This document shows positions 13,429 through 51,100 of a stretch of 64,000 nt of DNA, in pieces. Source of the stretch: Beroe forskalii (Eukaryota; Ctenophora; Nuda; Beroida; Beroidae); NCBI GenBank assembly GCA_011033025.1, contig WFMF01000319.1, positions 144,434 to 208,433 on the forward strand. Reading direction: 5' to 3'. A program made the position numbers and the translations under genes. Below the pieces are notes generated by a model. The model saw only the letters and a program-made list of their open reading frames with translations. It did not search any database and was not told the DNA's origin. Numbering within the stretch: the first letter of the stretch is position 1; every line of letters begins with the position of its first letter.

Positions 13429-13890
13429 AGCACCCTCAGTTAGTTAATTTAATATGTGTTGTGTTGTAAGTTTAAAAGAAGCCTAGGCTGAGCTTATGCT
13501 TAAATTCAACTTAAAAATAAATAAGCACTGTCTGATGGTCAAAGCAATATATACAGAAAATTAAAGCATGTAAGTTTTAAACTTTACAACACTACTTTAT
13601 ACAATCAAATTTGAGAATGTTGTGTTGCACTATATGGAGTTCCTGAAGAAGAGATTTTTATAATCTTGAAACTGTAAGTAGAATAGTGGAGTATAGTGTG
13701 TGGGTTAGATTACTTTATTGAAAGTTCTTTGTTTCACTGCATCAATGATCAATCACATCGAACATGTAAGTTATGTAATATTAAAAGCTTGTTTAAATAA
13801 ATATAAATACGTTTTCAGAGCAGATTTAAAAATTTCAATTGATGAACAACTTTTCAAAAAAGGAACGTGGCTAAATGCATGAAGTGTTGC
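13429..13890. other. 5' flank of the LINE ORF1, with a motif shared with 24.5 kb
   Basis: CTACTTTATACAATCAAATT at about 13,602 is identical to a stretch in the hairpin loop at 24,525. It is followed at 13,639 by CCTGAAGAAGAG, an imperfect stem and TTGAAACTG, a layout reminiscent of a hammerhead-ribozyme core. No gene was recognised. Confidence 0.4.
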
Positions 13891-18547: not shown

Positions 18548-20682
18548 GGCTATCCTAACATATATATATGTGGCTGGCAGGCGTTAGCAATTTCAGGCAA
18601 CGAAATTATGTTTTAGTCGTGTTGCAAAACTTAGTAATAAATCAGAAAATAATGAGAAATTTTTTCGGCCACCCTGAGGGGCAGGGGGGCCACGCCCTTT
18701 TTTCGCAAAATTAAACTTTCGAATTTTCAAAAATTCTTTCGCCATTGAGTTGCTTATGATGAATAAAAATTTTGAGAATTTTGTCCGAATTATTGGGTTT
18801 GAGGGGCGTGGAGGCCACGCCCTTTTTTCGCAAAAATTAAACTTTCAATTTTTTCAAAATTCCTTCTCCATTGAGTTTATTATGACGAATAGAAATTTTT
18901 GAGAATTTTGTCCGAATTATTCGTCACCCTTGAGGGCGTGAAATACGCCCTTTTTTTCGCAAAAATTAAACTTTCGAATTTTTCAAAATTCCTTCGCCAT
19001 CAAGATGCTTATGATGAATAAAAAGTTTTGAGAATTTTGTCCGAATTATTGGGTCACCCTAAGGGGCGTGGAGGCCACGCCCTTTTTCACAAAATAGATT
19101 TTCAATTTTTTCAAAATTCCCTTCGCTATGGAGTTGCTTATGATGAATTAAGGTTTGAGAATATTGTCGGCAATGTTGGGTTACCGTTGGGGGCGTGGGA
19201 AGCTTTTTTTTCGCAGAAATTTAAGTTTCGAATTTCCCCTCCAAACTCGCACGGTCAAATCACTGTCAAAGGGACATGTGGCTGTTAGCTCATGCGGCTG
19301 CCATCATTCGCCGTCCGTAGGACGGGAACCGACTAGTATGATTAACCCAAATTATTACTTTGCGTCTGTCGAGCCATGTTTAAACATTTAAACATTGTAC
19401 TACTAATGTGATATTGTGATGGATAACGTGTTCTAAGTTTTCTATGTAATCAATGTCAGTTGTCTTTCCTTAAAAACCATCATTCGTGTATAATTTATCT
19501 GCCATGTCTTAGTAGCTAGATTAATTGTACCCTGACTTTCACTCGATAGTTTGACTCGATAGCATTATTTCGTGATATTTTTGTACATACTACTGTACAT
19601 ACCTTTACCCAAAAATATCACACTCGAGCCATGTTTTTACATTGAATTGTTTTATGTGATCATATTGCGATAGATATCCATATCAGTTTGCTCTTTCTTA
19701 CCTATCTACCATCAATATATCAATAATCGAGCTATCATTTTACCATGCCATATTGTACGAGTAGCTGGGATTAATTCAACCCTGACTTTCAGTTAACACT
19801 CAATAGTTTTGTCTTTTTTATCATTTGGTGTTATGGTGTGCGTCAAACGAACTTGCCGAAAATATCACGCCATGCGACAGCGCAGCTTGAGACATTTAAA
19901 TGATTCATCGTGCGAGGCGAAGCTGGGCACTCTAGATCATTTCTGCAGTGAGGTTGAGCGTCTAAAATATTACCCTTTTGGCTTTTATTTAACCGAATAA
20001 GGACAAAAATGACTTTGAGTTTTGTCCAAGGGCCGGTTGTGCCGGTAAAGGGCGGCCGGTCAAATTAAGGCCACTTAATTTAGGTCAAATGAAACTTTTA
20101 TGACACCTTATACAGTGTTAAATTGTCTTGAATGGCATTATCATTATGTAACACCTAAAGCATCATATCAGACCGGAATTTGGGTCTTTTGGCGCAATTT
20201 ATTAAGTATAAATGGGTTTTAATGACCATTTTAGAGCATAAAGTCCAAGGAGCCGGCTAAAACGGTTCAAAAATGATTCAATTTTTGTCTATAGGGCCGG
20301 TTAAAAAAGGGCCGGTTAAAAAAAGGCTGGCTAAATAAAGGCCAATAAGGTATAATAAAACGGACCAAGAAAAACTTTTCATTTCTGAGCTTTTTAAAGT
20401 TATCGTTTTTTGTTTTTTATGACCAAAACTTTTTTATGACCAAAACTGTTTTTTGGTTTATTACTCACTTAATGGAGCTCAAGATCTAAACTTCACTTAT
20501 ATGAGATGTTGCTTTCATTAAGCTCTAAATATCCTGGTACCTACACAAACATTATCTACCTTAGGAGGTGTATTTATATGGGATAAAAATATGGGAGTTT
20601 TCTCAATCATTACTCTTGTTAACATATGATAATGACGTCATTTGAAATGCCATGGTGTTTGAAAGAATAGGGATTTTATGAA

Positions 20683-26314: not shown

Positions 26315-27942
26315 ATAAAACGCCTGAACAATCATTTTCTGAAAGAGCTCTATTTGGTAAGTCCTCATTTTTGTCCCTGTTTTGCTGATAGGTCGCACAC
26401 TTTGGATCTGGATTTAAATGTTTTGATTCGTTTTGTACCTTTAAATATTTTCAGTGTTCAACATTTACTATGATACAACTGAAGCAGAATTGAAAGATGT
26501 CTTCCTTAGATTTGGTCCTGCTAAAGTCAAGTATGCTTTGTTCCATACATGTTCCCAATTCGGTGTTCAGATAACTGTTGTGATATTCGACGATGCATAC
26601 TTCATTATAAGGGGATACTGTCTCAACTGTCCCTAACTCAAGAAATAGTGGATTGGGTCAGGGACCTGGGACAAATGGGACATTTGAGACAAATGGGACA
26701 GAGAAAATTGACTTAAAAATGAATTGGGACAGGAAAATTTGGGACAAATGAGACATTTGGGACAAAAGTGGCAGAGACAATGGAACTCATAATGATTGTG
26801 TATATGTGCGGCAAATTAGCATTCTTTACCTCACAACATATGATTTGAGGAAGTGCGTTTAAAGCAGCAACAGCTGCTGCAATGTTAACATATAACTTAG
26901 TCATGCCTGTTTTAAAGCAGAAGTGGCAGTGTAGTGACATAGTGGCAGTTGCTGTGTTGAAACTGCCATGTTCTTTTTCCTATCATAGGTTTTGAGAGTT
27001 TGCAACAAAGAATGTTTAATAACAACACAGCAAAACTGCTTAAACCTTGCATATAATTAACCTGCCGGCTTTTTGATATCAGCGAGCACTGCTGGGCACT
27101 ACAAAAGATGATGTGACCAGCAAATGCTGAAAATGTCATTAATTGCAAAGTCAATTAGTTTTATAGTTTGGATATAATATTCTGGCAGAAATAGTCACAA
27201 TTTACACATTTATTTGAATGTATCAAAAACATGGTTCCATTCAAATATTGCTATTTTTTCTCTTCTTTGATTGTCCCAGTTGTCCCGAATGTCTCAAATG
27301 AGAGTCCCAAACTCAAGAAAAACCGAAAAGTAAATTGGAACAGGGACAAGTGGGACAGTGACAATCCACCCGAAAATTCAATTTTTTCCGATTTTCTCGC
27401 CATGGTGGTGCAATGAGACTGTTGAAAACCCTCTTTCCAGGCTGATGATGAACGAACACTCCACAAAAAACAGAGGACACGCCTTTGTGGAGTACCAGGA
27501 CCCAAACCACGCTAAGGAAGCTGTGAAGCACCTCAACGGCTACCCGCTTCATGAGACAAAGATCAAGGTGCAGTTCAACACGAAGCAGCCACCGTGGTAC
27601 TCAGGCAGCTATCACAACACAAGGAGTGAGTGATAAGATGATTAGGTCTTTTGGGGAGTTAGAAAGTGAGAAGTGAGGAATTGTTACTTTCTGCGAGTTG
27701 GTAATTGGTATGATTTATGAATTGGGGGTGAATTAATTGTCATTGCCACTAAGTGATGCCATCATTCTGCCAATCATTTGTGTCAAGAGTATGATCTGGA
27801 TACTGCACATGATGTACATGCAGAACGTATCTATCAAGCAAAATTTACAACATTATATTTTGTGCGATAATTATCAATTAAATTATAACACATGGCCTCT
27901 TTTCAGAACAAATCGACAATCCTCCGTCTAATTCAGTGTATG
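26315..27942 (+). CDS. RRM1 block (exons 1-4)
   Basis: Exon 1 joins exon 2 to give RNP2 ALFVFNIYYDTT. Helix 1 follows (EAELKDVFLRFG), then exon 3 with RNP1 NRGHAFVEY and the closing strand ETKIKVQFNT. Spacing is normal for an ~80-residue RRM. Exon 4 adds the linker KQIDNPPSNSVY. Donors are GTAAGT, GTATGC, GTGAGT and GTAAGT; all acceptors are pyrimidine-rich CAG. The 0.9-kb intron 26,531-27,440 contains only short ORFs and a G-rich GGGACA repeat near 26,655-26,765. Confidence 0.85.
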
Positions 27943-30900
27943 GTAAGTTACTTTGTTGTGTTTCCAATGAAATGAGTCTTGTCAAGTGCTAAAATTTGTT
28001 TACACAAATTGACAATAATCGGTTCGATAGTCAAAAAGAGTAAAATAAATTTTTCGTGAAGTTGACCTATTAATCAGACATCATTTCAGTTCGGAACTTG
28101 GATAATGCAATAACCACTGAAGACTTGGATGCTCATTTCGCTCGCTTCGGACCAGTCAAAGTGAGTTTGGTGAAAGTCTGTTTTTCTACTGCAAGTAATG
28201 ATTACCTTAGTACCAGAAATATAGGCGACTAATAATTAAGGCGCTAGATATTAAGGCGACAAGATATTAAGGCGATTTTTTCTGGAGTTCAAATTGGATT
28301 TTTTTCATAAATAAACGATTTTTCCCACTTGAAATGACTATGAAAATTTCTTGTTGAGTGGGCCTTCAAAATACAGTACCTAAATCAGATCCTGAGCTTT
28401 TCAAACGGGTCAATCGACATTCTAGAGTCAATACCGGCATCTTTACATCAGAATATTAAGAAGATTAGAATTATAATGAGATTTTCCACTAAAATAATAC
28501 TTGAATAGGTTTTCGACTTAATAAATCGGTATTTTAATTTGTTTTTGCTGCTAATTGCACTGATAACTGGCTATCAAGTGATTTATTGTGTTCCTATATT
28601 GGAAAATTCAATTGGGGAGAAAAAATAACTGAAAATAAAGTCTTTTAAAAAATTAAGACGACCATATAATTAGACGACCAGATATTAAGGCGACAAGAAA
28701 TTAAGGCGATTTTCCAATATCGCCTTAATTTCTTGTCGCCTATTGTTCTGGTACTAAGGTATTGCCCGGTTTTGTCACTTTCCGAATTTTATGCTGTTGC
28801 ATGGTTGAGTGACATCCCTTTATTGTAAAACTTCTCGATGATTCCTAAATTTATCACTCCTTCATGTAATGGATACGTCTTGGCTGATGAGTATTAAAAG
28901 CTCATTTAATACTTATAGGTAGCGTAATGAAGCCCTCTACTGGTGCTCTATAATTGTAAACTCTTAACTCTTACCCAAACGTAATACATTAGGTTAATGC
29001 TTTCAATAAATAGTACAAGAATCGTTTAACTAAATGTACTTTGTCAGCATTAGTCTTAATATGCGTGAATCAAACTCGTGTAATTCTGCTTTGATATTCA
29101 TACCTGCTTTGTTCCTTGGCCATCGAGAATGGTCTCTTGACAGATGTTAGATTTTGTTGCGAAAACATCAAACTTTTCCTTTCAGTTTGGTAATCGATCA
29201 CATCACGAAGCGAAACAAAGGCTACGCATTTGTGGACTTCGCTTCTATTGACGAGGCCTCCACTGCGATCAAAGCAAACCAACGGCGTCATGTTCTTTGG
29301 GAGACAACTTCATGTGGAGTTTAGCAACCGGGGAAGCAACCTTGATAGTAAGTGTGGGTTTCTAAGCAACCTTGATAGTAAGTGTGGGTGTCTAAGCAAC
29401 CTTGATAGTAAGTTTGGGTGACTGGGTGCCTTAGCAACCTTGATAGTAAAGTAGTAAGTGTGGGTGTCTAAGCAACCTTGATAGTAAGTGTGGGTGTCTA
29501 AGCAACCTTGATAGTAAGTTTGGGTGACTGGGTGCCTTAGCAACCTTGATAGTAAAGTAGTAAGTGTGGGTGTCTAAGCAACCTTGATAGTAAGTGTGGG
29601 TGTCTAAGCAACCTTGATAGTAAGTTTGGGTGTCTAAGCAACCTTGATAGTAAGTTTGGGTGTCTAAGCAACCTTGATAGTAAGTTTGGGTGTCTAAGCA
29701 ACCTTGATAGTAAGTGTGGGTGTCTAAGCAACCTTGATAGTAAGTTTGGGTGACTGGGTGCCTTAGCAACCTTGATAGTAAAGTAGTAAGTGTGGGTGTC
29801 TAAGCAACCTTGATAGTAAGTGTGGGTGTCTAAGCAACCTTGATAGTAAGTGTGGGTGTCTAAGCAACCTTGATAGTAAGTGTGGGTGTCTAAGCAACCT
29901 TGATAGTAAGTCTGGGTGTCTAAGCAACCTTGATTATAAGTTTGTCTGTCTAAGCAACCTAAGTTGTTGCCAAAATCTTCCTGACCACAATCATTTTACC
30001 ACATGGTATTTACTACACGCGATTCACGAAGTAACTACTATTAAGTAACTAAATTACTCCTGTACTCGTTAAGTTTGTCATTGGTAAGGGCAACCTACTA
30101 GGTAGAATTTATGACAATTTATAAAGTTTCTCTGTGTAGAAGTATAGACCAACCTCATTGCTAGCTCAATTATGAATTGCTTTGCTCAAAATTTGACAGT
30201 CAACTATAAAAACATTCCCCATTTTAAGTAACAGGATAGAAAGTTTGTTGTTGGATTTTTATTTAGAACTTTAGAAGATTGTGCTGTTCTCCCGACGAAA
30301 CAGTGATGCGCGATTTTACGAACACGCAGCAAATTGATTATCCCATACGAAAGCCCGCGTTAGCTTTGAAAGAGAGTTTTTTGGCATTAAATCATATTTG
30401 AGCATAATATGGTTACATCACAACATGATTTGAATGCCAGGGGTTGGAAGGACGAAATTTCAATGTGGTGATGCAGCAGACTGGTGACTGATGAGCGATG
30501 TTAGATTGCACTATCTGTACTGGCTTGCAGAACAATCATTCAAATTGTTAAAAGTTTAAATACCTTATGATGGCCCGATATAATAGTTGTCGTTTATGCT
30601 TTTATGATTTAATTGTTTTGGGATCTAAGATTAACCCAATAAATTAGTAAATTCAAATGAATCAGAATCTGAGAATCTGTATTATCAACTCATTCAATTC
30701 AGGTAGAAAGTCCTATCTTCGAGCGAGTCTTCGACCCCGGTATTTTCTACTGAGGATTCGGCCTCGGTTAGAAAAGTCATTCATCGGTTCGAGCACTCGG
30801 CCTTGGCTTTTACCGATGATTGAAGTTTAACCGAGGCGTTGGTCGCAAAACCAGCCAATTTTGATCGAGAAATTCAGATCCTTTCTCGACAGAAACTCAA

Positions 30901-33900
30901 AGTAAAACTAAACCCTTACATTTATGATTAATTCAGGCAGGAAGTCAGAATCCGTGAGTTCGCTGAACAGTGATTTGGATGAAAGTGAGGCGGCGAGACT
31001 ACGACAAGAAAGAGAGCAAATGGAGGAAGACTTATCTGGAAAGAAGGCCGAGTTAGAGGAAGCCAAGGCCTCAGGGGTAATGCAACGTTGTTTGTAACCT
31101 TGTTTGTAGCTTCAACTTTTCACTGTGTTTTATAGATTACAATACGAAGTACTTGATGCTTCAGGTTCATAGTGAGCAGTATGTTCAACCAAAATCATGT
31201 TTCAGTGTTCAATTCAGCTAAAAAGTCGGATTGCTGAACGTAGTTTCAGTTCATGTTAATGTTCAGATAATCCAATGTGTAATCAAACCAGTACACCTTA
31301 ATCTCTGTAGAAATTTTGATTCCTTCCCCTGACCTATTTCAATCTTAATAGCAATAGAACAATGCCCCGAAACCAATGGGGTGGTGTAGGCATATCAGGT
31401 AATCTTGGATAACCGAGAAATCGATCAGAAATCCGCTGTAAATTCACCTGAACATAGGAGAAGGTGTTCTAGCGTTTTTGTCATAAAAGTGTCAGGATTT
31501 TACAGGATTTTACAAGAGGTTCCTCTCCATTCTTGTCATGGATTTTACGGAATTTCCGTCAATTAAAGTATCAACAAAGAGCTCCCTGTGGCTTTGCGGC
31601 TAGCATTATGTCTGCTCGATATCACGGTCTATGTTTAAGGCGGTTCGGCTGACGTAATTTCAATTGAGCAGAGTGGATGCTTAATTACGCTGAATTTTCT
31701 ACTTGCTTGAATGAAACCATGTCCATATCATGATATCGATTACGGATATTCTTAGAAATTCGTAGGAGCTTGTTTGTTTCCAGCTACGGAACGCGCCGCC
31801 TGCTTTGTCGAGGATCAATAGGTACAACTCCTGTAAAATCATGACATTTTTGGGCTAGAACATCTACTGGAACATAGAGAGTCGGACCTAAGTGTACCAA
31901 CTGTACCAAATGCAATATCTTGGTACAACGGTCATATCTCCGAATTCCTACGTCATAATTTCATAAAACTTTCCAATCTATTCGAGAGTGATCCTAAGAA
32001 GGGAAAAACGTCAAAAAATTGAAAGTCCACGTGCTATTTTTTTTCGCTAAAGTCAAACACAAGGATTTATTTTGATTTTACTAAGGTCGATTTGGTACAG
32101 CGGTCATATCTCCGAATTCCTACGTCATAATGTCATGAAACTTTCCAATCTATTCGAGAGTGATCCTAAGAAGGGAAAAACTTCAAAAAATCAAAAGTCC
32201 ACGTGCTATTTTTTTCGCTACAGTCAAACACAAGGATTTATTTTGATTTTACTAAGGTCGATTTGGTACAGCGGTCATATCTCCGAATTCCTACGTCATA
32301 ATTTCATGAAACTTTCCAATCTATTCGAGATTGATCCTAAGAAGGGAAAAACGTCAAAAAATCGAAAGTCCACGTGCTAATTTTTTCGCTACAGTCAAAC
32401 ACAAGGATTTATTTTGATTTTACTAAGGTTGATTTGGTACAGCGGTCATATCTCCATATTCCTACGTCATAAATTCATGAAACTTTCCAATCTATTCGAG
32501 AGTGATCCTAAGAAGGAAAACGTCAAAAATCGAAAGTCCACGTGCTATTTTTTCGCTACAGTCAAACACAAGGATTTATTTTGATTTTACTAAGGTCGAT
32601 TTGGTACAGCGGTCATATCTCCGAATTCCTACGTCATAATTTCATGAAACTTTCCAATCTATTCGAGAGTGATCCTAAGAAGGGAAAAACGTCAAAAAAT
32701 CGAAAGTCCACGTGCTATTTTTTCGCTACAGTCAAACACAAGGATTTATTTTGATTTTACTAAGGTCGATTTGGTACAGCGGTCATATCTCCGAATTCCT
32801 ACGTCATAATTTCATGAAACTTTCCAATCTATTCGAGAGTGATCCTAAGAAGGGAAAAACGTCAAAAAATCGAAAGTCCACGTGCTATTTTTTTCGGTAC
32901 AGTCAAACACAATGATTCATTTTGATTTTACTAAGGTCGATTTGGTACAGCGGTCATATCTCCGAATTCCTACGTCATAATTTCATGAAACTTTCCAATC
33001 TATTCGAGAGTGATCCTAAGAAGGGAAAAACGTCAAAAAATCGAAAGTCCACGTGCTGTTTTTTTTGCTACAGTCAAACACAAGGATTTATTTTGATTTT
33101 ACTAAGGTTGATTTGGTACAGCGGTCATATCTCCGAATTCCTACGTCATAATTTCATGAAACTTTCCAATCTATTATGACAAATGAATTCGGAGGTATGA
33201 CTGTTGAACTATTGGTTGATCTTGGTAAAATCGAATTAAATCCTTGTGTTTGATAATAGAGAATGAATGATCTCATAGGCTTCTGATTTTTTGCCGTTGT
33301 TGGCTTTTAAGGATCATCCTCGAATTGAATACAAAGTTTCATTGATATCTGACGAAGGGATTCGGAGATATAGACAAATTACCAGGCGAACATAGAATTT
33401 TCCAAAATCTCGTCTTGGTACAATTTAGGTTTCGGTCCTACTGAACATAGATAACAGAATGACATATACGTAGCGCGCGGCGACATTTTCTCGCTAAAAG
33501 TTTTGAAATTTATGTTGATTTCGCCCTAAAATTCGATCGCGCGGCACTGCGCGGCGCTTTATTTGGTTTGAAAAATGGAATTGGTATCAAGTCACCGATC
33601 GCAAACACTTGGAGCTGGGCGATGTTCTAACTTGTTGGTGAAAAAAGGTTGAAAATATCACACTGGATTGACTATATTTCTAATTTTCTGCCAAATCAGA
33701 CCTGTTTTTAGTCAATGATGTTTTTTGCGTTTGTACGTTCTTCATTTGGGAGATTTTGTCCCTTCCCCACAAGAGCTCATCTCACTGCTAACGGCTTAAG
33801 GGCCACTTTGACCATTGCCTATCAGATAGGGGAACTCTTTCATTTCTTTCTTCCATATCTCTCCTTCAATCTCTCCCAAATTCAGCACTTCCCTGAATCA

Positions 33901-36900
33901 AGGCACCCCACATAAATATAACGCGCGAAATGTTCAATATGTCCAAGTTTAATTTGTCAGGTGTAATTGATCCGTCAAGTTTGCTTATGAGCCTAAAGCG
34001 GCCCTCTTAGTGAAATCACAAATGTTTGTGGGGAGAATCACACCTTCAACTATATAAATGACCAAAAATTTAAATCTCAAAATTTCCGAAAACTGTTCAA
34101 GGGCACCATATTATCATAAAACTTCATATCAAATCTAACATCAAAGCAATCACAATTATCAATTTTCAGTCGGAAGATGCCATCCAGTGCGTCAGAGAGC
34201 GCATTTGGAGACTACAAGATGATATTGCTAGAATCAAGTACGGTTTTATCGTTTTAAGGTCCTATGAAAAGTCATATTATCCTTTCCATAAGTAACCTGC
34301 CTAACACCCTACCTAAAGTACTAAACCTAAGATATAAGTGGCTTAACTTTGGATGCTTCCTGATTTCCTGCACGTTTGCAGCACCAAATAACTCTAATTT
34401 CCTACTCGGTAAATAACCCTGATATTTCCCTCAGACTGTCAGAAGAGTACCCGCAGTCGAAGGGTAGGTCCCGGTCCCGAGAAGACAAGCGGAAGAAGAA
34501 GCGCCGGTCTGACGAAGGAGACAGCTACTACTCGGACGAGAGGGAGCATACCCCGGGACTGGAGAGACCCTTCACCCCCACCAGCTTCGGGAAGCAGGAG
34601 GTCCCACCACCGGGGCAGCATATCATCCAATAGCGTGAGTTGGGGCAGCATATCATCCAATAGCGTGAGTTTGGGCAGCATATCATCCAATAGTGTGAGT
34701 TGGGGCAGCATATCATCCAATAGCGTGAGTTGGGGCAGCATATCATCCCATAGCGTGAGTTGGGGCAGCCTATCCTCCAATAGCGTGAGTTGGGGCAGCA
34801 TATCATCCAATAGCGTGAGTTGGGCAGCATATCATCCAATAGCGTGAGTTGGGGCAGCATATCATCCAATAGCGTGAGTTGGGGCAGCATATCATCCAAT
34901 AGCGTGAGTTTGGGCAGCATATCATCCAATAGCGTGAGTTGGGGCAGCATATCATCCAATAGCGTGAGTCGGGGCATCATATCATCCAATAGCGTGAGTC
35001 GGGGCAGTATATCATCCAATAGCGTGAGTTGGGGCAGCATATCATCCAATAGCTTGAGTTGGGGCAGCATATCATCCAATAGCGTGAGTTGGGGCAGCAT
35101 ATCATCCAATAGCGTGAGTTGGGGCAGTATATCATCCAATAGCGTGAGTTGGGGCAGCCTATCCTCCAATAGCGTGAGTTGGGGCAGCATATCATCCAAT
35201 AGCGTGAGTTGGGGCAGCATATCATCCAATAGCGTGAGTCGGGGCAGCATATCATCCAATAGCGTGAGTTGGGGCAGCATATCATCCAATAGCGTGAGTT
35301 GGGGCAGCATATCATCCAATAGCTTGAGTTGGGGCAGCAATGCAGCATATCATCCAATAGCGTGAGTTGGGGCAGCAAATCATCCAATAGCGTGAGTTGG
35401 GGCAGCATATCATCCAATAGCGTGAGTTGGGGCAGTATATCCTCTAAAGGCTTGAGTTTCAGACTTTCGAAATTGGAAATTTGAAAAACGCCTTTTTCGA
35501 TGACTTCTTGGCCGGGGGCCAACTTTGAAAATTAATATCTTCAATTTTAAGGCCTACTGTGAATCAAAAGTTTGAACGATTTTTTGGGCTCAACTCAGCA
35601 TTTGTTGAAGTCGATTTTGGACTTTTGGCACGATAGGAGTTCGTGCGAATGCTTTTTAGTGAAACATATATAGCTTCGACTAGAAAGTAGTTTTTTATCT
35701 TGATCCTAAACAAAAAATCCTGTCATTTTAGTTCATTGATTGTGGAAACTGGAGGCTGAGCAGGGTTGTATAGTTGTATATTACCCAGTGCGGTTCTATA
35801 GATTTATGTATGTGTCTATTTGATCAGAGGAATTCAGTAATTAGAAAATTTCGCTTGGCGACCAAAAGATTCCCACATTCCCGACCAACAACAATCGTAC
35901 CTCGACGGGTTAAATAATTCCAACAGAAAGAGAACGACAAATTGTGATGTTAAGATGGGGTAAGATTATCATAGCGAAAAATCAGAATGATAATTATAAT
36001 TGTAGCTAAAATGCTACATTTAATGTTCCGGGTTGAATAGTTTACATAATCATTCGAAATTGAAGTCGAGACTGTCTCTCTTCATCCTAAAGTTGCTTAT
36101 CACCTGAATTTAAAATGTTTTTTGGTCAACTGGTTCGATTTTTGTCCATAGGGCCAAAAAGGGTCAGTTGAATAAAGGCCGGTTGAATAAAGCCCAATAA
36201 GGTTTGTTTGTCAATGGATCTATCAATTAAAATACAGTACTTTCGACAGAAATTCGAAAGAAATTCTTCAATCCCTTGATTGACCGATGCATGTGCAGTG
36301 TGCACTTATATGGGTAATACTAGTACCTGCATTTCTCCAAATACGCGTAGAATAATGTATCCTTCCTGCAATTATTATATGGAAATTGATTGTAACGTAT
36401 GACCACAAAACTTGTTAAATAGTTAAATATCCATTAAATAATCTCGGAGTGAAAAATAATCGTATTTCCCACCGAGTTTAAGATGTTCGTACGTATTTTA
36501 GCTGAAGTTCCGTGGTGTCTAGTCGTTTTCTGAACGGTTTCGCCCTGACCTAAAATAGAAGTATTAAATGCATCCGTCTGTGTGGGTTAAGTGCTTCCTT
36601 TGGAATGACGGTGGCTTTAGGGTGAAGCCAATCAATGATATATCACGGTATCTTGAAATAATTCTAGGGCAACGGAAAAGTGGGAAGTTTAGTTGCGAAA
36701 TCTAATGATATTTTGGAAGATTTTAATTTCCTCGATTCGCCTAAGTGTGATGGCTTTAATTGGGCAAAACTTGCTAAGTCGTCTTGCTTGGTCGAACAGA
36801 GGAAATAAAAATTTTACCGCAACACTCAATCTTGTAGCAAAATTAACTTAACAATCATGCTAGAAAAAAGAGGTTACGGAGAGGAGTATTGTGAATTGTG

Positions 36901-39900
36901 ATGATGAACAACTCTCAATCCAACTTTGTTATGTACGAAGGACACGATTAAATCTTTAAAAGCACCGATCGGATTGCAAATAATAAGTCATAAACTTTCA
37001 AATGTGAGTCAAACTAGAAAAACTTGCGAAAAGCCCCCTGAGCACAGGGAACTACTCGAGTCGTGATTCATTCATTGATCAAACGAGGCAATCATGGTTT
37101 TAGTTTCACCACCAAACAGCGTCCAGGCTCCGTTTATTCGTGTGGTTGGTGGATATTGCGCCAAAAATGTCACACTTCTGATGATAAAATATGTGGTCAT
37201 GTATAAATTGTCTTATTGTGTTTGTATCTAGAACTTATCCCAAGCGTTCCCAAGTTCCTACTTCATTATCATATCCCATACTCCATAAATATTGCCCTTC
37301 ATGTCAACACGCTTAGCGTCTCAGACGGCTTTGTAAGTTATGTGATGTACTGTCGTTATAACTGTGCAGATGATTTTGTCGAGAGCTTTAGAGCTTTTTC
37401 CTTTCCTGTTATCTCGTGATAATTAGTTACTGAAAAAGTAGTTTGGCATTTGAGTTGCTCCTAAATCCCTCTCAATTCTCATTTTACCTCACCCCATCCT
37501 TTCATTATGATTTAACCCGCCTCTTATCTCACTCACATCCTTTCCTTCGTCCTCTTTCCCCGGCTCACTTCATCATACACTACACTCCCTCACCCCTCCC
37601 TCTCCCCTCCCTCTCCCTCACAATGTTCCAGCAGATCCACTCTATCTTTCCTCTGATTTTACCCCTTCATTTGTACTTCCTCTTCCCACCACAGTCTCAT
37701 CCCCCTCCTCACATCCCTCCCAACCCCATTCACAGTCTAATCCCCCTCCTCACATCCCTCCAATCCCCCTACTCACATCCCTCCCAATCCCCCTCCTCAC
37801 ATCCCTCCCAATCCCCCTCCTCACATACCTCCCATCTCCACACAGTCTAATCCCCCTCCTCAACCCCCCTCCCAATCCCCCACACAGTCTAATCCCCCTC
37901 CTCACATCCCTCCTAATCCCCTACAGAGTCAAGGAGATGACGGGTACTTGGAACACCGTGTATTTGTGGGCGGGATCAACCACATGACCACCCCCGAGAC
38001 CTTCAAAGCCGTCTTCTCGAAGTTCGGCAAAATCAGCAGCTACTTTCTCAAGTGGGATAAGACAACGGGCAGAAACAAGTTAGTTATGAACATAGTTTAT
38101 TGGATAATCACTTAATCGTGCGAATCTTCTTGTTTCTCACACTTTTCATAAAAAATCTCAACTGGCTTCCGACATCTGCTGGATTAGAGTTAAATGAGCT
38201 GTTTATTGAATTTTAGGAAAGTTAATTTCGCTGACTTATTACAAATCATTCTGCAGAAAATCATCTGAATCAGAAAAAAGGATTTCTTTAGAAGTAGTGA
38301 TTTAAATGTAATTTATATGAATCAGTGAAAGATGGTTTGTAACGCAGCCTATTGCAGGGGGTTCGGGTTCGTGTCCTTTGACACCGCAGAACAGATGGAA
38401 AGTCTGTTGTCAGCCCACAAGGACAACCCTCTCGTTATTGACAACAACGTTGTCAACATCAAACGAGTCTTCCCTGAATCCGTACGTACTTTTACACGTT
38501 ATTCTCGGTTAAGAAATATGATATCTCACAAAATCAGTAGTCAGTGCTCACTATAATAGTCATGTTGATTTTGACTTTTCATTTCATTCCGTTCATGTTT
38601 TCTTGTACTTTATATAGTATTTGGATCCCTCTCAGCACGTATACCGGTTCCTTCTCAACCGACCCCTCTCAGCACGTATCCCCATTCTCACTAAACTTCC
38701 CTCGCCCAGTACGTATCCCCGTCTGATTCCATCGTCGGTACGTATCCCCGTTCCCTCTGAACATTAAACATCTCCTCCACAATACGTATCCCCGCTCCCA
38801 CTTAACAACCCTCCTCTCAGTACGTATCCCCGTTCCCTCTGAACATCCCGCCCATGTTGTGTCGCTCGGCTCCCCACTTCACAGACCCACCCCCCTACTG
38901 CGATGAGAGGAACCCTCTGCCGGAGGACCCGAAGATAGTCGAGTTTTTCTACAACCTCGGCATTCACGTGAGTTTACCATACAAGAAACGCCCTTATTTC
39001 CTAAAACTTAACTTCGAAATAGTGGGAGGATACCACTTTTATTCAAACCAGTATTATTACATATTTTCTTTGTATGAGGTACATTTAGCTTGTAACTCAT
39101 TGGCCTACGCCCTACATAAATGATACCTCAAAGATTTTTTGGCCGCTATCATTGTTGGTAAATGTGAAGGAATATCAAGACACAATTATTAAATGCTTTT
39201 ATAAGTTTTAAATGCAGCTAATTCTTGAGGAATGTATGATGACACGTCTTCTACACTTAGAAATGGTTCTCTCGCAGATCTATCCTTTTTTCAGATGGAT
39301 CAAATCTCAAGGCATCCAGAATCCTGATATCTCAAGTTTTTCTGGTTGACCTGATACTTTGCGGTCCTTATAATGGAGCAAAATCTCGCTTTTTGGGGTT
39401 AAAAAGTCCATATCCATTTGGTAGTAATGCATGAATGAAGCAGGTACCTTATTTACCTGACATTTTATCCCTCAGCACTACAACCTGTTACGGATTAACG
39501 TGTACCATTGGAACCTGCTATTCCCTGGTAACATGTTCAGCTCCTCCAAGATGGACTCAGCTCCCTCGACCAGACAGCCTTCTCCTGCTCCCCCTCCCTT
39601 CCCTGGACCTACTCCCCCTGCTCCCCCGGTAAGTATATTCCCCCTACTTCCCCTCCCTTCCCTGGACCCACTCCCCCTGCTCCCCCGGTAAGTATATTCC
39701 CCCTGCTCCCCTAGTAAATATACTCCCCCTGCTCCCCCCACTCCCGTTCAATTCTCAAAATAAAGGAATAAATATTGTTTAATTAACGTATTTCTTATTA
39801 TGCGAGAAATTGTTATCACATCTTCAGTCTTCACATTTCGGGTGATAAAAAGTTCGTGTGTGGGCAATGGTGAATTTTAGATAACTTATTATGATGAGCA

Positions 39901-42900
39901 GCAAAATAATCACAAAATAAAATCTAAGTGTCAGCTCCTGTACCGTGGCGTCTATTGAACGTTGCAATATATTATGTCCAATATTATAATATTATTATGT
40001 TGGTCACATATAATAAGCTTTGATATAACTCCTGAAGTGGAAGAATCGCCCCCTCCAATCATCCACTGGAATCGCTTAAAAAGTTTAAAAAGACTCAATG
40101 AAATAGATCTTTTTCCAGAGCCTTCCAGTGTTTCCCGACGCTGGATCACCGGCCAGCAAGTCATGTGACCCCGATGATGGCGGGACCACCACACCGGAAC
40201 ATGTACCAGCACCAGAACACCTTCCCCCGACACTCCATACCCAACTTCCACGAGGCGATGAACTTAAAGACGCTTTTTAACAAGTTAGTGGATATTAAAC
40301 CGCTCAAGATATTCATCCCACTCGCTCAGCCATTCGAAATGCTTGCTCTTTGGGCACTCCTGCAAACCACAATCAAGTGCACCAGTCATTCTCTCTCTCA
40401 CTCACTCAATCCTTATCCACTCATTCCCTCTTATCCTTACCTACTCATTCGGTCCCCTATCCACTCACCCCACTCACTCATCCACTCCACTGCAGTTTGA
40501 TGAAGACCCACTCCACGAAAGCACCCACACCCCCTCCACCCCTCGCCCGCAACACCCCCTCACCAGCCTTCACAAAACCGCCTCCTCCCCCCGGCAAATG
40601 CGTCACTCCTCAACCTGACATCAAGTATTTCCTTCGCTCACTCCAACACAATGCCGAGGAAATGAGACGGTAAAATGGTCATAATCACTGTACACAATTT
40701 GACCTATTCCAGTTTTCATGACCAGTAAACCATGACCAGTAAACCATGACCAGTAAACCATTACTTGTGTTTCAATTCAAAGTTTCATCCTTTAATCTAA
40801 GTTTATCCTTAGTAACAATCCTTCTATCCCTCAGTAATTCGAACAGTATGCGGGGTGGTCAGCAGTTTAACAACCCTCCGAACAACAACAAACGAGTGAT
40901 AGCTAACAACTACCACCACCATAACCACACTCCTAACTTCCAGCACTACCACAATAACAACCATAACAACAACCATCACCATAGCAACAGCAACAGGTTA
41001 GTAACAACCATCACCATAGCAACAGCAACAGGTTAGTAACAACCATCACCATAGCAACAGCAACAAGTTAGTAACAACCATTAGGTACCATAGCAACAGC
41101 AACAGATTAGCAACAACCATCACCATAGTAACAGCAACAGGTTAGTAACAACCATCACCATAGCAACAGGTAAGTAACAACAATCACCATAGCAACAGCA
41201 ACAGGTAAGTAACAACCATAGAATTTAGAGTTATTAGAGTTTTAGAGATAGAACGAGCACTTTTCATGGTTCTTACATTCCATACTTTGATAATGCAAAT
41301 TTTAATCCCTGATTTGATTCCCGGTTTATCCTTAATTCCATATCCTAATCATGTCCTTGCCGCAGTTTCCATGGTAACAACCACAGTACACAAGCGAGGT
41401 CTCCGATGGAGACCCTGCAGCCTCCAATACGTCTACAGCAGCACGAGAGACGGAGTGAAAACAGTAAACCCGTCGTCAGCAAGGTGAATAACTTAACTAC
41501 TAGGGGGGGGGCATATTGGTCAACTGTAGTAATACTTTTTTGGCACTGCAGTTGCACTTTTCAAAAAATGGCACTGTTTTAGCGTGCAAAATGGGTATAA
41601 AGAAGTTGCATATTTAGATTAATTCAACCATCTAACCATACTCAAAAATTTAGATTAATTCAACCATCTAACCATACTCAAAAATCTTAAAGAGGAAAAT
41701 GTTCTTAACTTCTTAACCCATCCCATACATCAAGCCTCATTTGAGGAATTCATTTCTCTTTTTTCAGTCGGTATCCATGCCGGACAAGATACCCAATGGT
41801 CCGCCGATATCCTTCTCCCCTACTAACGTGTCACCAAACTTCACTTCCCTGCATCCCTTCTCTCCTGAAAACTTCTCTCCGAGCAAGGTAACATGATACC
41901 TTTAAAATCGTTATTTGCTCCAATTTCACCGCGCTGCGGTATACTTGAGTAATTGAGTATACTTGTATTAATGATACTATAAGATCAGGTAATTTACTTT
42001 TAACTGCGATGTAATTATCGTGACTTTAAGTGGTGAATTGATGCATTTATGTGCACATTTTGCAGGAGGGTGACTCCTGCATTCAGGAGGGTGACTGGCT
42101 CGTTAACTCATGAACTGTCTGATTGATTTATTCCTAGGCTATTTTCGTGGGAATAGAACAAAATCTCATAATTTTTTTCAATTCCATCTAAATCTTGCTT
42201 ATCAAATACATGACGAAATTGTGCGATGGCATCGACCAGGTTTATTATGTTTCGGAATGTAGGCTGTTTTCTTTCATATTTTATTCTTGTGTAGAATTGA
42301 GCGTTGTGTGTAGAATCGGGATTTATTCATCAATTCAATCAGAAATAGGACGAGTAGAGTGGTTACGGATATCTTCAACTTCAACTATTACAATTGAAGA
42401 TGTTCGTAAACACTCTATTCGTCCTATTTGTAATTTAATAGAACTGAGCGCTGATAATCGTACTAGCTTACTTGTACGGGGAATGATTAAAATAATTCCT
42501 CAAAATATCTTATGTGTGATTGAGCATTGTCTGGAGCCATTGACTGGAACACGAATTAAATAATTCTTTAGGTATTTTATTTTACGTTTCAAAGAATAAT
42601 TTCGGTCCGACAAATATCTGATTTGAATGCAGTATAAATGATGTTGAATAAACTGCCTAACTATTATAGTATTATCACCTAAGTATAATGGAACTAGCTT
42701 ACTTGAACAGGGAATGATAATTGCCTAAGGAAGCCTCAAAATATCTAATGTGTGATTGAGCATTGTCTGGAGCCATTGACTGGAACACGAATTAAATAAT
42801 TCTATAGGTATTCTATTTTACATTCCAAAGAATAATTTTGGTTAAACAAGTATCTGATTTGAATGCAGTATAAATGATGTTGAATAAACTACCTAACTGT

Positions 42901-45900
42901 TATCACCTACATAAAATGGGATAAGTCGCTAAGTATCATTTTTCAGAATAAGGTGGATTCAACCTTATTCTTTTATTCTGCAAAAAATGGTTTTATTATT
43001 CCTTGATAACCAATACTGTTCCCACACTTGATAAATCCCAGCTAGTATGGACTAAATAAACGCCAGTAGTATGAACTAATAACCCCAATGCCAGGTATCG
43101 AATAGCCCGGCCCACTCGTCTCCCCCTGGGGCGCCCCTGCAGTCCCCTCAACAAGTGGGCACGCCGAGTGGGGGAAGCACTGCTGCTCCCCCTCCCACCC
43201 AGGGAGGAGGAGGAGGGGGTATGATGCCCCCTCAACCCCCCACAACGGTGGCAGAGGAGACACAGAATAACAGCAGTTACGGCAGCCACGAGGATACACT
43301 CACATACGAGGTGGGTGGGACTTTGAGGAGTTCAGTCCGAAGGACGTTTGTTCAGGAAATTTTTCCAGGACATTTGACCAGGACATTTGTCCAGGACATA
43401 GGAAAAATGTTAAAAGTGGTTTTATAACCCCAAAACTCACTACCTATTAATGTATCCTCGTAATATGATTCAGCACAGAATTGGGGGCCCTTTGATTAGT
43501 AGGAAGTACTTAGTGGTTTTAAAAGCCGTTTTTGGTCCGGAAACCCGAACCATTAAAGAATGATTCCAGTTGACAGCAATCCAGCGTTATTTTGATAGAT
43601 CTATTCACAAAGTCTTCATTCGTGTAACCCTATAACTTTAAACCACACGAATGTGATATGTCAAACTATGATAAAGTAGTTTGTGCTTCTCAGAATTATT
43701 CGAATAATATCAAATATAATAGATAAGTCTCGTGTCCGATTTAACCGATATAATTCATAGAAATCAAAATCTAATATTTAACTCTCAGCTCCCTGCTCTT
43801 GACAGGCAGTTTCATCATATTAATGAAATTCATGCCAATTGGAGCAGTTTTAAGGCACCGAAGTAGAATCTTCTGACATGTATCTTTTAGGATTAATGAT
43901 GGGGGCGTATTCCCTGACCCACAAACCCATTTGATATTGACCTATCAGCGCACAAGTTGATCGTAGACTCATGTCAATACCATGATTTCTGGATCCCACG
44001 TAAAAGCACCATCAAAAGGGAAGAAGTTGGCGAATTTTGGCGAGCATGAAAAATAAATAGATGAACAAATAAAGTTTCAAAATCGGTCATGTTTTAAAAT
44101 GAACCATGTTTTTCAGTCGAGTGAGCAGTTGGACCAAGCCTTCCAGCCAGGCTATCAGCCCCCATCCTTGCAGCAAAGCAACATCCACAAGGCTAACCCT
44201 CCCCCCTCCACGCCTCAACAGGTATGCCATTGCTTTCCAAACGATGCTTGTTTTCCATAGCATTGTTTTTAAAATCAACTCGGGTACACCTACTTAATTT
44301 TCGATTTACGATTCTTCTTATCTTGTTCTATTCAATATCCCATATATTTGAAAGTTTTAAGGTCCAAATTTTTCCCCCAGAACATGCCTAACGTAATCCA
44401 CGTGACCTCGACCAGTCACCCACCCCAGCCCATGGCGTCCACTCACCAACCTATGGTGTCCACTCACCAGCCGCTGGTGTCGAGTCAGCAGTCCCAGACG
44501 AACCTCCAGGAGTTGACCATGTCCCCTCCCCCTCCCTCCTCCTCAGGGGGGCATCCCATGGAACGGTCCTCCTCCGCAGGGACCCATCCCATGGAAAGGT
44601 CCTCCGCTGGGACCCATCCCATGGAACGGTCCCGGTCCTCATCTGGCTCCTACACTGAGGTAGGGGCATTTTTGTGGGGCTTCGCTGAAGGTTCCAAGTC
44701 TGAGGACCCTTAGAGTCCAGACTGAGGGTCCTAAGGCTCCTACAGGTCGAGGTACTGAGGTAGGGGTGATGTGAAGGCCTTTTCATTGTAAGGGTTTTTC
44801 TGAGGGTCCTGATACTGAGGATTTCAGGAAGGTGATATGCCTTTTTAATTTTTGGGGATTTTGCCGTTTGCGAAGGTACGTGATGTGTTTTCATTAACCC
44901 CTATATTCATTCTGATTTTCGGGGGTGATGTTTCTGAACTCCAAAATAGGAGTTGTAATAAACGTTCTGCCGTTTTAATACTGACTTGAATTTCTACAAA
45001 TCACACGATTGAGATCACTGATCATGTGATCACTTATTTCAATCTTCATTTTAATTTCTAGATTGAATTCTGCAAAGTAATAGTTAACACCAATGTTCAC
45101 GAATACGTTGAGACATGACCAAATAGTTACACCATCGTCTATCATATCGTTATGCTAAACTACCCACCCAACTTATAGTTAACCACGGCCCACTGCGTAT
45201 CGTTTAATGATCTGTCTGGATTCAATATAATTGGTTGCCATAAGTCAACCAATGAATATCGGTATATCGCCTTGAAGTAGTTATAGAAATTTCGCATTAA
45301 TCACAGACGACAAATGAAGTTTTTATAGATGAATAATATCCTAAGATTTATGAAAATCTTTAGGCAAATTTACAATGAACACGATCGCCTATCTTTTTTT
45401 AAAATAATCTTCCAACAGGATATCAGATCTTTCCGAAAGACGTAATAAAATGCGCTTCCACCTTGATAAATGCAAAGTTCGCAATGGTAAATTAATTAAT
45501 AACGCAAGCAGTATGTTTAAATACTATCTCTATGAAACGAAACTTGACTACACAGATAACGAAAAACATTTAGGAGTGCAATTTGTCACGTATCTAAAAC
45601 GGAACGCCCAGCACAAAACTAAGACCAGTCAAAAAAATTGTTCTTTTGCGAAGGAATTCCTCCTTCAATGGAAACACCAATCAACGTAAGATTTTATTTC
45701 TGGCAATAATTCGTTCACAGTTTGAGCATTGTTCACAAATTCGGAGGCCAGTACACAAAACAAGCATTGATAAAAGAGCAGAAAAGAGCAGTTAAGTGAG
45801 TTTTCGGTGAAGATTTCTGCAGCTATACCAAATCAGAATACAAATTACTACCAAAAATTTAAGAATCTTGATGTCCTGCCGATGAAGTACAAGTTTGATT

Positions 45901-48109: not shown

Positions 48110-51100
48110 CATGTTGTCATAGTGACATGTTGTCATGTTAGCAACATAGGTTGCTAAGCAACAGAAGCTGGTTGTCAAGCACCAGAACAATGCTTTGTGT
48201 GTGCTTATAATGTTTGTGTGTGAGTGTGTGGTATTATGATATCGTTAAAATATACGTTACCAAGCACTGGAAGCTTTGAAGGAAGCTTTGAAAGAAGCTT
48301 TGAAGGAAGCTTTGGTTTCGTGCATTGTGTTCTGTAACAGACACTTGAAGGACGGTACTTTGGCCCTCGGTCGATAAGACGTAAGGAAGTAAGGACTTGT
48401 GATATGGAATATGGAGGCATTGCCACTAACGCAATGTTCTGCCAATTTCATGATGCTGTGGTAATATACCGTCTCAGAAACATTCAAATGGACAATATCT
48501 GGTGTTCAGAAATAAAGCACCATCAATTGACTATTTTAAACCATGATGATTGTGTCCCTATTGGCAACCGTACGCACCCAATGGTACATTATATGTTCAT
48601 ATACTATGTACATAAAGTTCATAAAGAAATCAGAAACACGAAAAAATTACTAATTATGATTTGATATAATAATCAAATTAATCCATATCATGGATGAATG
48701 CAGCAAGAACGATTATAGTACGAAGAGTCTTTCTTGAAGCTTTATTTTGAAAGTTGAAACTTAGAAAGCGTGGCAGCAATAAAAGTAAATGAATAATTTT
48801 ATTGAATTGTTGAATTAAATTATTCTTGATGGGGATGGATTGATATTGGTTATAGTAATTTTAAGAAAAATGTATATGTTGTTTCCGGTTGTAAGCTTGT
48901 TTGCAAGCTTGTTTCAAATGGGTACACTATCATATGAACCATCCAGTCCATCCAATTTTACAAACTGTATCTCGTTCTTCTCGTTTTAGTCCTCAAATCG
49001 ATGCCATATCAAAAGAAATTATTTCGATTAGGAAAATTCTGCTGTCTCAATATCACATCACACAATCAGAGAAACAGACCAGAATGCTGAATGGGTAAAA
49101 TAATTTGTGTTCAAATTGAGAAGTATCCCATTTGATACGAGTTTCTTTTTCCTTGAAATTTGTTGGTGGAGTTTAAAAATGTTACTTTGGGATTTATTTC
49201 AATTTGATTACGTGATCATGGAATGATATAAGTGATGTAGTCTTCAAGACTAAATCATAGAAATGAAAGTTCAAATTTTGGTAGTATCACAAGGTATATT
49301 AATTTCAGAATAACGGGACTTTCATGACTTATTTCAAAGAGATGAATTGTCATAAATTTCAGTCATTTTGAAACGTTCCATACCCTACTGCAAAGAAGGC
49401 TGAAATTATCTTGAACGAATAAAGCAATAATCTAGCTTGCTTAATAATGTTTATGATAAAGACGATTTAGTAAATTATAGCCGTTGATCGTTTCATACGG
49501 ATTATTAAATTCAGATTCAAAAGGTTCAAATTAATCATTGCCAATTTTTTGGAAACAGAAGCCCAGGAATTTTCATATTTTGATTGGGTAATGGGTTCTG
49601 ACTGCTCTTTCTCCCCTTTTCTTGATATTGGAGGTTGATTGGATTTTATTTCTAGGTTGCAGAAGTTGAATACTTGAATAATTTCTTCGTTTCTTATCGC
49701 TGCCCTAGTACCCTGTTGAAGTATATTTCTATAAATTTGGGTTTTCTCAGTTTATATTGATTTTTGATAGATATTTATATAGAGATTGTCCTAAACAGAC
49801 TATGTATGGCGTTAATCGTTATAATTATATAGTGTGTTGTTATACTTATAGTTAAAATTTTTGGAAGTTTTACCGAATTAATGAAAACTTTACATTAATT
49901 CATAAAATCCAATATTTTTTTGCAAAAAATATGATGAGGTCTGTGGAAAATTATCAATTAATTTATATAATTGTTATAAATCATGATGTGATAGTGCGTG
50001 ATCTAAAGAAAAATTTCGTAACGAAGTATGAATATGATTTTAGAGGGTTGAATGAATTTAGAAAAATTGCTTTTATCAAGAAGCAGAAATATATATTAGT
50101 ACTAAGAAGCATAATATTTTGGAATGATAACTTATTACTATATAAGTATATGATATGTAATCATGCTTTAATTTGTGTTCTAGCTTGGAAATAATAAAAT
50201 CTATCAATATAATATATCATTATAATGTTAATGTTATAATAACTAACTAAAATTGTGCCATATAACCCGTATGTTTCTTTTTATTCTCCGTTACAAAGAA
50301 CTAATTCGCTGGGCAATCACGTGGTTAAATCTTGATTGTGCCCCTTTAAGTTTATTTGCTCCGATGTTTAACTTTTAATGCATATTCATTTTATGCATTA
50401 AGATTTTGTCCGTCATTAATCTGAGCCCATTTGGAGGACCCACGTAAGCACTTAACACCTAATGATCGATAACTGTCAACGTCTGTTGAATGAAAAATTT
50501 AATTCTGAAGAAAACTCTTTCGCGTGATTTGTTCAAAGCCCGGAGGTCTATTATATTATGTTAATTTTGTTTAGTACATTTAACAAAATTTCAACTGTTA
50601 ATTAATCAAAAATTTTCGTTATCTCATCCCATCTTCCCCTTTATAGCAATGTAGGCCTGAATCATGAAACAGAAGCTCAGCGTTTCAGAACACCATAGGA
50701 ATTGAAATGGTGGCACAGCTTGATTCGTAAGTGAAATAATCTAAATTGATAAATTTTGAATAGATAAGTATAATTTTTTCTTCGTTTCCATAAACGGTTA
50801 CAACGGTTAGTAGTGCTATTGCTAATGGGTTCAAGATTTTTGACACCGGGAGGAATTTGTGAAATTTTGCGAAATGTAATACGTGTGAAGTTATTGAAGC
50901 TGTAAATGAAGAGAGTATTCGGAGAGTATTTCCTATGATTTAAATCGTCATCCCATGATGTGCAATTCAGTTCAAATTTACTGAGAGGATTTTACCTTCT
51001 GTTTAATGCAATGGGAGGAAAAACCTTTTTGGAAGGCAAGTTATATCGGTCTCTGGATCAAAATGTGGCCTTTTGATGTAGCATTACAAGTTGGGCTTCA

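What the first reader, a model, noticed from the sequence alone, without database searches (positions are those of the whole stretch)
29334..41215. One gene, several introns: 5' splice sites amplified as minisatellites
In four introns of the same gene the exon end plus its donor is the founding unit of a tandem array (29,334; 34,617; 39,565; 40,975), with a weaker case at 44,640. Unit lengths differ (30, 30, 60, 35-36) and sequences are unrelated, so each array arose separately, yet all start at the exon/intron boundary and almost all copies keep a good GT(A/G)AGT or GTTAGT. Chance placement four times at a donor is unlikely. Either slippage or repair is biased to 5' splice sites (for example through R-loops or U1-bound nascent RNA), or extra donors are selected. 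I recall minisatellites at intron 5' ends described in amphioxus genes; that parallel is from memory and should be checked. If general in this genome, it is a process creating alternative donors and possibly new introns.
Basis: partly seen in the sequence, partly recalled or inferred. Interest (0 to 1): 0.88.

Follow-up and report, generated by a model that had tools for sequence, protein, structure and literature searches.

The report
Splice-donor minisatellites in one animal gene
In one animal gene for an RNA-binding protein, the end of an exon together with its splice signal has been copied head-to-tail at four separate introns; the same kind of array is already known from amphioxus genes, and the copies look more like harmless hidden duplications than working alternative splice sites.

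Summary
A 24-intron model of a multi-RRM gene has tandem arrays whose first unit spans the exon end and its donor at introns 6, 9, 13 and 16, plus one degenerate extra copy in intron 21. Units are 30, 30, 59 and 35 nt and are found nowhere else in the window.

A bias to 5' sites in particular is not shown: 5 of 24 donors against 2 of 24 acceptors (P = 0.42). Nothing indicates selection for extra donors: the donor hexamer is no more conserved than the rest of the unit in the three arrays tested, and most downstream donors break the reading frame or follow a stop.

Such arrays are known as "mirages" in amphioxus (passages). Most likely these are tandem duplications across exon-intron borders, hidden because an exon-proximal donor is used: new members of a known kind. 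Organism unidentified; no RNA; four of five frame breaks in the gene model touch array-bearing exons.

The parts
26315..48109 (+). Multi-RRM protein gene, 25 modelled exons (3,449 nt) and 24 introns; 5' exons not found
   Evidence: GT..AG joins and frames; RRM_1 matches, two in the N-terminal piece and one in the piece after intron 9
29186..29347 (+). Exon 6 (second part of RRM 2), founder exon of array A1
   Evidence: Frames (two frame breaks upstream of the array); donor ATA|GTAAGT, phase 1, fits the next exon
29334..29960 (+). Array A1, 19 units (13 of 30 nt, 6 of 38 nt), starts 14 nt inside exon 6 and runs into intron 6
   Evidence: 18 GTAAGT
34435..34634 (+). Exon 9, founder exon of array A2
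   Evidence: donor AGC|GTGAGT; in-frame TAG before this donor as assembled, so a one-base indel upstream is suspected
34612..35458 (+). Array A2, 28 units of about 30 nt, starts 23 nt inside exon 9
   Evidence: 25 GTGAGT
37675..37932 (+). C-rich array at the 3' end of intron 9, reaching about 6 nt into exon 10 (acceptor-side array)
39476..39628 (+). Exon 13, founder exon of array A3
   Evidence: donor CCG|GTAAGT
39584..39738 (+). Array A3, about two and a half units of 59 nt, starts 45 nt inside exon 13; its second donor (39688) is the one that joins in frame as assembled
40835..40996 (+). Exon 16 (His/Asn-rich), founder exon of array A4
   Evidence: donor CAG|GTTAGT, phase 2, fits the next exon
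40968..41219 (+). Array A4, 7 units of about 35 nt, starts 29 nt inside exon 16
44634..44766 (+). Exon 21 end plus donor (intron starts at 44660) and one diverged second copy in intron 21
   Evidence: alignment; score 34 against a random maximum of 23

Best explanation
These are mirage-type minisatellites. A short tandem duplication arose several times across an exon's 3' end and its donor, by slippage or unequal exchange, in some cases between short direct repeats (shown: A1 and A4 are closed by 8- and 9-nt copies of their own start; A2 is not; A3 was not measured), and then grew by ordinary block turnover (shown: higher-order periods of 106 and 226 nt in A1). If the spliceosome uses an exon-proximal donor, the mRNA is unchanged and every later copy lies in the intron, so the array is free to expand (inferred). 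The extra donors are by-products, not selected elements (inferred from their ordinary rate of change).
For: Junction-spanning copies at introns 6, 9, 13 and 16; unrelated units, none elsewhere in the window at 20% edits (A3 searched with its 26-nt part). Donor hexamer not better conserved than the rest of the unit. All units aligned: 7/108 against 35/432 (A1, P 0.69), 4/162 against 27/648 (A2, P 0.49), 4/36 against 23/174 (A4, P 1.0). Standard-length units only: 1/72 against 8/288 (12 of 18 units, P 0.69), 3/120 against 17/480 (20 of 27, P 0.78), 1/24 against 3/116 (4 of 6, P 0.53). The first unit was left out in both; A3 has too few copies. Frame: in A1 the first 3 of 18 donors join in frame without a stop; in A4 only the first of 6; in A3 one of 3, the second; in A2 none as assembled, the first 7 of 25 in the neighbouring frame. 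Array-end direct repeats, block periods. Amphioxus mirages are reported not to disturb splicing in Adh3, globin and troponin C genes (passages).
Against: No RNA. In A3 the first donor does not keep the frame as assembled; in A2 no donor does. Four of the five frame breaks of the gene model touch array-bearing exons or their joins (exon 6 twice, exon 9, exons 13/14). Hiding alone does not explain why junctions should receive more arrays than intron interiors. Exon-end simplicity could supply seeds, but only introns 13 and 16 rank high (1st and 2nd of 24); intron 9 ranks 9th and intron 6 17th. SRSF1 is reported to favour the intron-proximal of two donors, hnRNP A1 the intron-distal one (passage of PMC5585400), so use of the exon-proximal copy cannot be taken for granted. 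The conservation test has little power for A4.
Confidence: 0.58

Rival explanations
1. Tandem duplication is actively biased to 5' splice sites, through R-loops, U1-bound nascent RNA or co-transcriptional breaks.
For: 4 donor-spanning arrays among 12 intron-touching repeat segments; P 0.0009 to 0.02 over the 12 simulation settings that allow the observed overlaps. No acceptor-spanning copy with the strict 30-mer query, 0 of 24.
Against: 5 of 24 donors against 2 of 24 acceptors, P = 0.42. Unit GC skews of both signs. Amphioxus globin mirages occur at both borders.
Confidence: 0.13
2. No junction-specific process: a repeat-rich gene with partly simple coding sequence, where arrays seeded in exon ends happen to run over the donor.
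For: 13 repeat segments in the gene; 19% of 8,826 intronic and 5% of 1,363 exonic 30-mers tested have a copy within about 200 nt. The exon ends of A3 and A4 are the two simplest of 24. Allowing 100 nt of exon overlap raises P to 0.006-0.02; counting either border, P(at least 4) is 0.01 to 0.2 with 60 or 100 nt allowed. One wholly exonic array at 44533-44646.
Against: A1 and A2 start in sequence of ordinary complexity (17th and 9th of 24); donor-only P is below 0.01 in all 6 settings with 60 nt allowed.
Confidence: 0.15
3. Extra donors are selected, as alternative in-frame donors or as U1-binding platforms in the intron.
For: 50 donor-like sites scoring 7 or more in the four arrays (18, 24, 2, 6; the four first donors included) against 13 in 14,367 nt of array-free intron, and none in six other repeat stretches. 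Two units are 30 nt and their first copies read open. In C. elegans one intronic minisatellite is over-represented near regions of multiple alternative splicing (passages of PMC4039745).
Against: Hexamer not better conserved than the rest of the unit; most downstream donors out of frame or behind a stop; A4 and A3 units are 35 and 59 nt, not multiples of three. Donor density follows from copying a working donor.
Confidence: 0.07
4. Artefact: wrong exon ends, a decayed gene, or mis-assembly.
For: Five frame breaks in 3,449 nt of modelled coding sequence, four of them touching array-bearing exons or their joins. Exon 9 has a strong donor-like site upstream of its array (34464, score 9.2), although out of phase as assembled.
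Against: Donor-acceptor phases agree at A1 and A4; RRM matches are full; the in-phase GT sites inside exons 9 and 13 all score below zero. A probable frame break also in the unrelated receptor ORF (judged by a motif from recall) makes base errors the simpler cause.
Confidence: 0.07

Closest known systems
Amphioxus 'mirages' (Adh3, globin, troponin C, PGBD5 genes)
   Same: Minisatellite-like tandem duplications spanning an exon-intron border; units of 10-72 nt in Adh3, 150-160 in globins, 60 and 108 in PGBD5; many copies carry splice signals; PGBD5 has two arrays in one gene. From passages of PMC3087553 and PMC3902484.
   Different: Here four clear donor arrays in one gene with up to 28 copies; organism unknown; splicing untested. 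The original Adh3 paper was not held.
Internal tandem repeats at exon-intron boundaries in human segmental duplications (PMC2812944)
   Same: Units of 30 bp on average, some at exon-intron boundaries, where they can change splicing (passages).
   Different: Those vary between recent paralogs and are linked to new introns; no paralog was available here.
Intron gain by tandem genomic duplication of AGGT (review PMC3443670)
   Same: Tandem duplication creating duplicate splice signals (passages).
   Different: There the duplicate makes a new intron inside an exon; here existing introns are lengthened.

Membership tests
Amphioxus mirage | Tandem repeat whose unit spans an exon-intron boundary | tested here: met
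   4 of 24 donors; units listed
Amphioxus mirage | Many repeat copies carry splice signals | tested here: met
   51 of 57 units keep the donor: 18/19, 25/28, 2/3, 6/7
Amphioxus mirage | Regular splicing despite the copies | not testable with these tools
   No RNA; the reading frame favours exon-proximal donors in A1 and A4, the second in A3, and is unresolved in A2
Amphioxus mirage | Length instability between haplotypes | not testable with these tools
   One sequence only
Amphioxus mirage | Found in a cephalochordate | not testable with these tools
   Organism not identified; no genome held; two repeat-pattern scans gave 0 matches
Intron gain by AGGT duplication | New intron whose two ends are the duplicated AGGT | tested here: not met
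   The modelled acceptors lie 976, 2468, 380 and 146 nt beyond the arrays, so the array copies do not form the intron's far end

The most novel reading that the evidence does not exclude
In this genome exon-intron borders, donors above all, are a recurrent birthplace of minisatellites, so that genes steadily gain decoy donors at intron starts by a mutational process tied to transcription or splicing, and the spliceosome copes with dozens of near-identical donors by choosing an exon-proximal one.
Probability: 0.2. Interest if true: 0.75.

Novelty: new member of a known kind. Interest (0 to 1): 0.45.

Why it matters
Four separate arrays in one gene make a natural test of how the spliceosome chooses among up to 25 near-identical donors, and of whether duplications arise preferentially at exon-intron borders. 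If the animal is not a lancelet, it widens a phenomenon that the two papers on mirages seen here describe in cephalochordates.

Tried and rejected
R-loop or G-rich strand model: rejected as a common cause, unit GC skews differ in sign. Polarity of decay away from the exon: no significant trend (Spearman P 0.46, 0.50 and 0.19 for A1, A2 and A4), although the last unit is among the more diverged in A1 and A2. Selection on donors: no support. The alignment misplaces the 38-nt variants of A1 and two odd units of A4, which inflates changes; one search repeats the test on standard-length units only, with the same outcome. Arrays as a dispersed element: no copies elsewhere in the window on either strand. 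RNA families: 0 Rfam matches at gathering score. Organism: no genome held; 28- and 24-base patterns from the window's own repeats gave 0 exact matches in viral and prokaryote contigs, a long shot for a eukaryote. Gene identity beyond RRM domains not settled: the best solved relatives are poly(A)-binding protein for the first two RRMs and yeast nuclear polyadenylated RNA-binding protein 4, PUF60 and hnRNP A1 for the third.

Literature: ten searches (two of them on neighbouring questions). In their listings I recognised no paper on such arrays in an invertebrate other than lancelets, but I opened only seven papers and saw only passages of them, and one search listed 20 of 27 papers. The library is open-access only, so this is no proof of absence. 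PMC2206037 gave nothing beyond a mention of tandem repeats in the amphioxus huntingtin locus.

Simulation: the wholly exonic segment (44533-44646) was left out, leaving 12 segments (9 or 8 in the runs with a minimum length of 60 or 90). The six settings that allow only 30 nt of exon overlap (P 0.00002 to 0.0007) would forbid two of the observed arrays as delimited by the scan (A3, 52 nt; A4, 44 nt), so I rest on the other twelve. Arrays were placed independently and may overlap.

For that correction I moved the best explanation from 0.60 to 0.58 and the artefact rival from 0.05 to 0.07.
Full report
What is there. The window (64 kb, GC 38.5%) holds a plus-strand gene that I modelled by eye and by frame as 25 exons (3,449 nt) and 24 GT..AG introns, from 26315 to a stop codon at 48107-48109. 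The 5' end was not found. The N-terminal piece matches RRM_1 in two stretches (E 4.6e-33) and the piece after intron 9 in one (E 1.8e-14). I did not settle which gene it is.

The four arrays. A1 (29334-29960) has 13 units of 30 nt and 6 of 38 nt, with higher-order periods of 106 and 226 nt. A2 (34612-35458) has 28 units, 21 of them 30 nt. A3 (39584-39738) has about two and a half units of 59 nt. A4 (40968-41219) has 7 units, 5 of them 35 nt. The exon ends are 29347, 34634, 39628 and 40996, so each array begins 14 to 45 nt inside the exon and its first unit includes the donor. The units are unrelated to one another and were found nowhere else in the window. A donor is kept by 18 of 19, 25 of 28, 2 of 3 and 6 of 7 units. 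Intron 21 has one diverged second copy of exon end plus donor.

Is it more than chance? A uniform 30-mer self-copy scan over the gene gives 13 repeat segments: four span a donor, one abuts the acceptor of intron 9, one is wholly exonic and seven are inside introns. Random placement of the 12 intron-touching segments gives P(at least 4 donor-spanning) of 0.0009 to 0.008 if 60 nt of exon may be covered and 0.006 to 0.02 for 100 nt. With 30 nt it is 0.00002 to 0.0007, but that setting would forbid two of the observed arrays, so I do not rest on it. Counting arrays that enter the exon by 10 nt or more at either border, the observed number is still four, and P(at least 4) is 0.01 to 0.2 with 60 or 100 nt allowed. 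The question was prompted by the data and rests on one gene, so I read this as suggestive.

Donors only? With the strict query 4 of 24 donors and 0 of 24 acceptors have copies. With a permissive local alignment 5 of 24 donors and 2 of 24 acceptors do (Fisher P = 0.42). The acceptor cases are the C-rich array at the end of intron 9 and a borderline copy in intron 6. A bias to 5' splice sites in particular is therefore not established.

Are the extra donors selected? Change in the donor hexamer is not lower than in the rest of the unit. All units aligned: 7/108 against 35/432 (A1), 4/162 against 27/648 (A2), 4/36 against 23/174 (A4), P 0.69, 0.49 and 1.0. That alignment misplaces some odd-length units. 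With standard-length units only: 1/72 against 8/288, 3/120 against 17/480 and 1/24 against 3/116, P 0.69, 0.78 and 0.53. In A2, 3 of the 20 units tested have lost the G of the GT itself. A3 is too short to test and A4 gives little power. The four arrays hold 50 GT sites scoring 7 or more on a matrix made from the 20 other donors of the gene (median 8.6), against 13 in 14,367 nt of array-free intron; six other repeat stretches hold none at that score, one of them two at score 5. These are strong decoys, but strength follows from copying a working donor.

Reading frame. In A1 the first three of 18 GTAAGT donors join the next exon in frame without a stop; a stop at +71 closes the rest. In A4 only the first of six does. 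In A3 the first donor is out of phase with exon 14 and the second, 59 nt later, is in phase; a one-base error in the C-rich exon would make the first fit instead (inference). In A2 the assembled frame meets TAG before the first donor; in the neighbouring frame the first 7 of 25 donors fit. The in-phase GT sites inside exons 9 and 13 all score below zero; exon 9 has one strong site upstream of the array (34464, 9.2), out of phase as assembled. There are five frame breaks in the model: exon 6 twice, exon 9, exons 11/12 and exons 13/14. Four of the five touch array-bearing exons. I take them for base errors of the assembly, since domains and splice sites are otherwise intact and the receptor ORF nearby seems to have one too, but they weaken the case for the exact exon ends of A2 and A3.

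How it probably arose. A1 and A4 end in 8 and 9 nt that repeat the array's start, as expected of slippage or unequal exchange between short direct repeats; A2 shows none and A3 was not measured. Exon ends of introns 13 and 16 are the simplest of 24 by DUST, while introns 9 and 6 rank 9th and 17th. Unit GC skew has both signs, which does not favour R-loops as a common cause. A duplication across a donor leaves the mRNA unchanged if an exon-proximal donor is used, and all later copies become intron. This last step is inferred and needs RNA: SRSF1 is reported to favour the intron-proximal of two donors and hnRNP A1 the intron-distal one (passage of PMC5585400).

Comparison. [quoted passage not shown] of PMC3902484). 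[quoted passage not shown] Human segmental duplications have repeats of 30 bp on average, some at exon-intron boundaries, that can alter splicing (passages of PMC2812944). The structural definition of a mirage is met here; splicing, length polymorphism and taxon could not be tested. I therefore call these new members of a known kind. Whether the animal is a lancelet is unknown.

Noticed in passing
window 29186-29347, 34435-34634, 38481-38885, 39628-40119: Five frame breaks in the gene model, best explained by single-base assembly errors; array copy numbers deserve the same caution.
   Followed up: partly
window 56712-57954, minus strand: Rhodopsin-type receptor ORF (7tm_1, E 2.2e-13) whose last transmembrane segment seems to continue in another frame (motif judged from recall), another probable one-base error.
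   Followed up: no
window 48105-48136: 16-nt unit duplicated head-to-tail right at the stop codon of the gene: again a tandem duplication starting at the 3' edge of coding sequence.
   Followed up: no
window 38623-38854: Degenerate array with CAGTACGTATCCCC-like units just upstream of the acceptor of intron 11, whose donor is GTACGT; two donor-like sites at score 5 or more, none at 7.
   Followed up: partly
window 31913-33188: 171-bp tandem array, 7.4 copies, 96% matches, inside intron 7, with no donor-like site at score 5 or more.
   Followed up: partly
window 4193-4727 and 18670-19198: Tandem arrays of 133 and 129 bp that look related and in opposite orientation, judged by eye from the consensus units.
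   Followed up: no
window 11905-13443, minus strand: 512-aa ORF with a weak PHD-finger match (E 4.3e-05, 23.9 bits, just under the Pfam cut-off of 24); from recall it could be the first ORF of a LINE.
   Followed up: no
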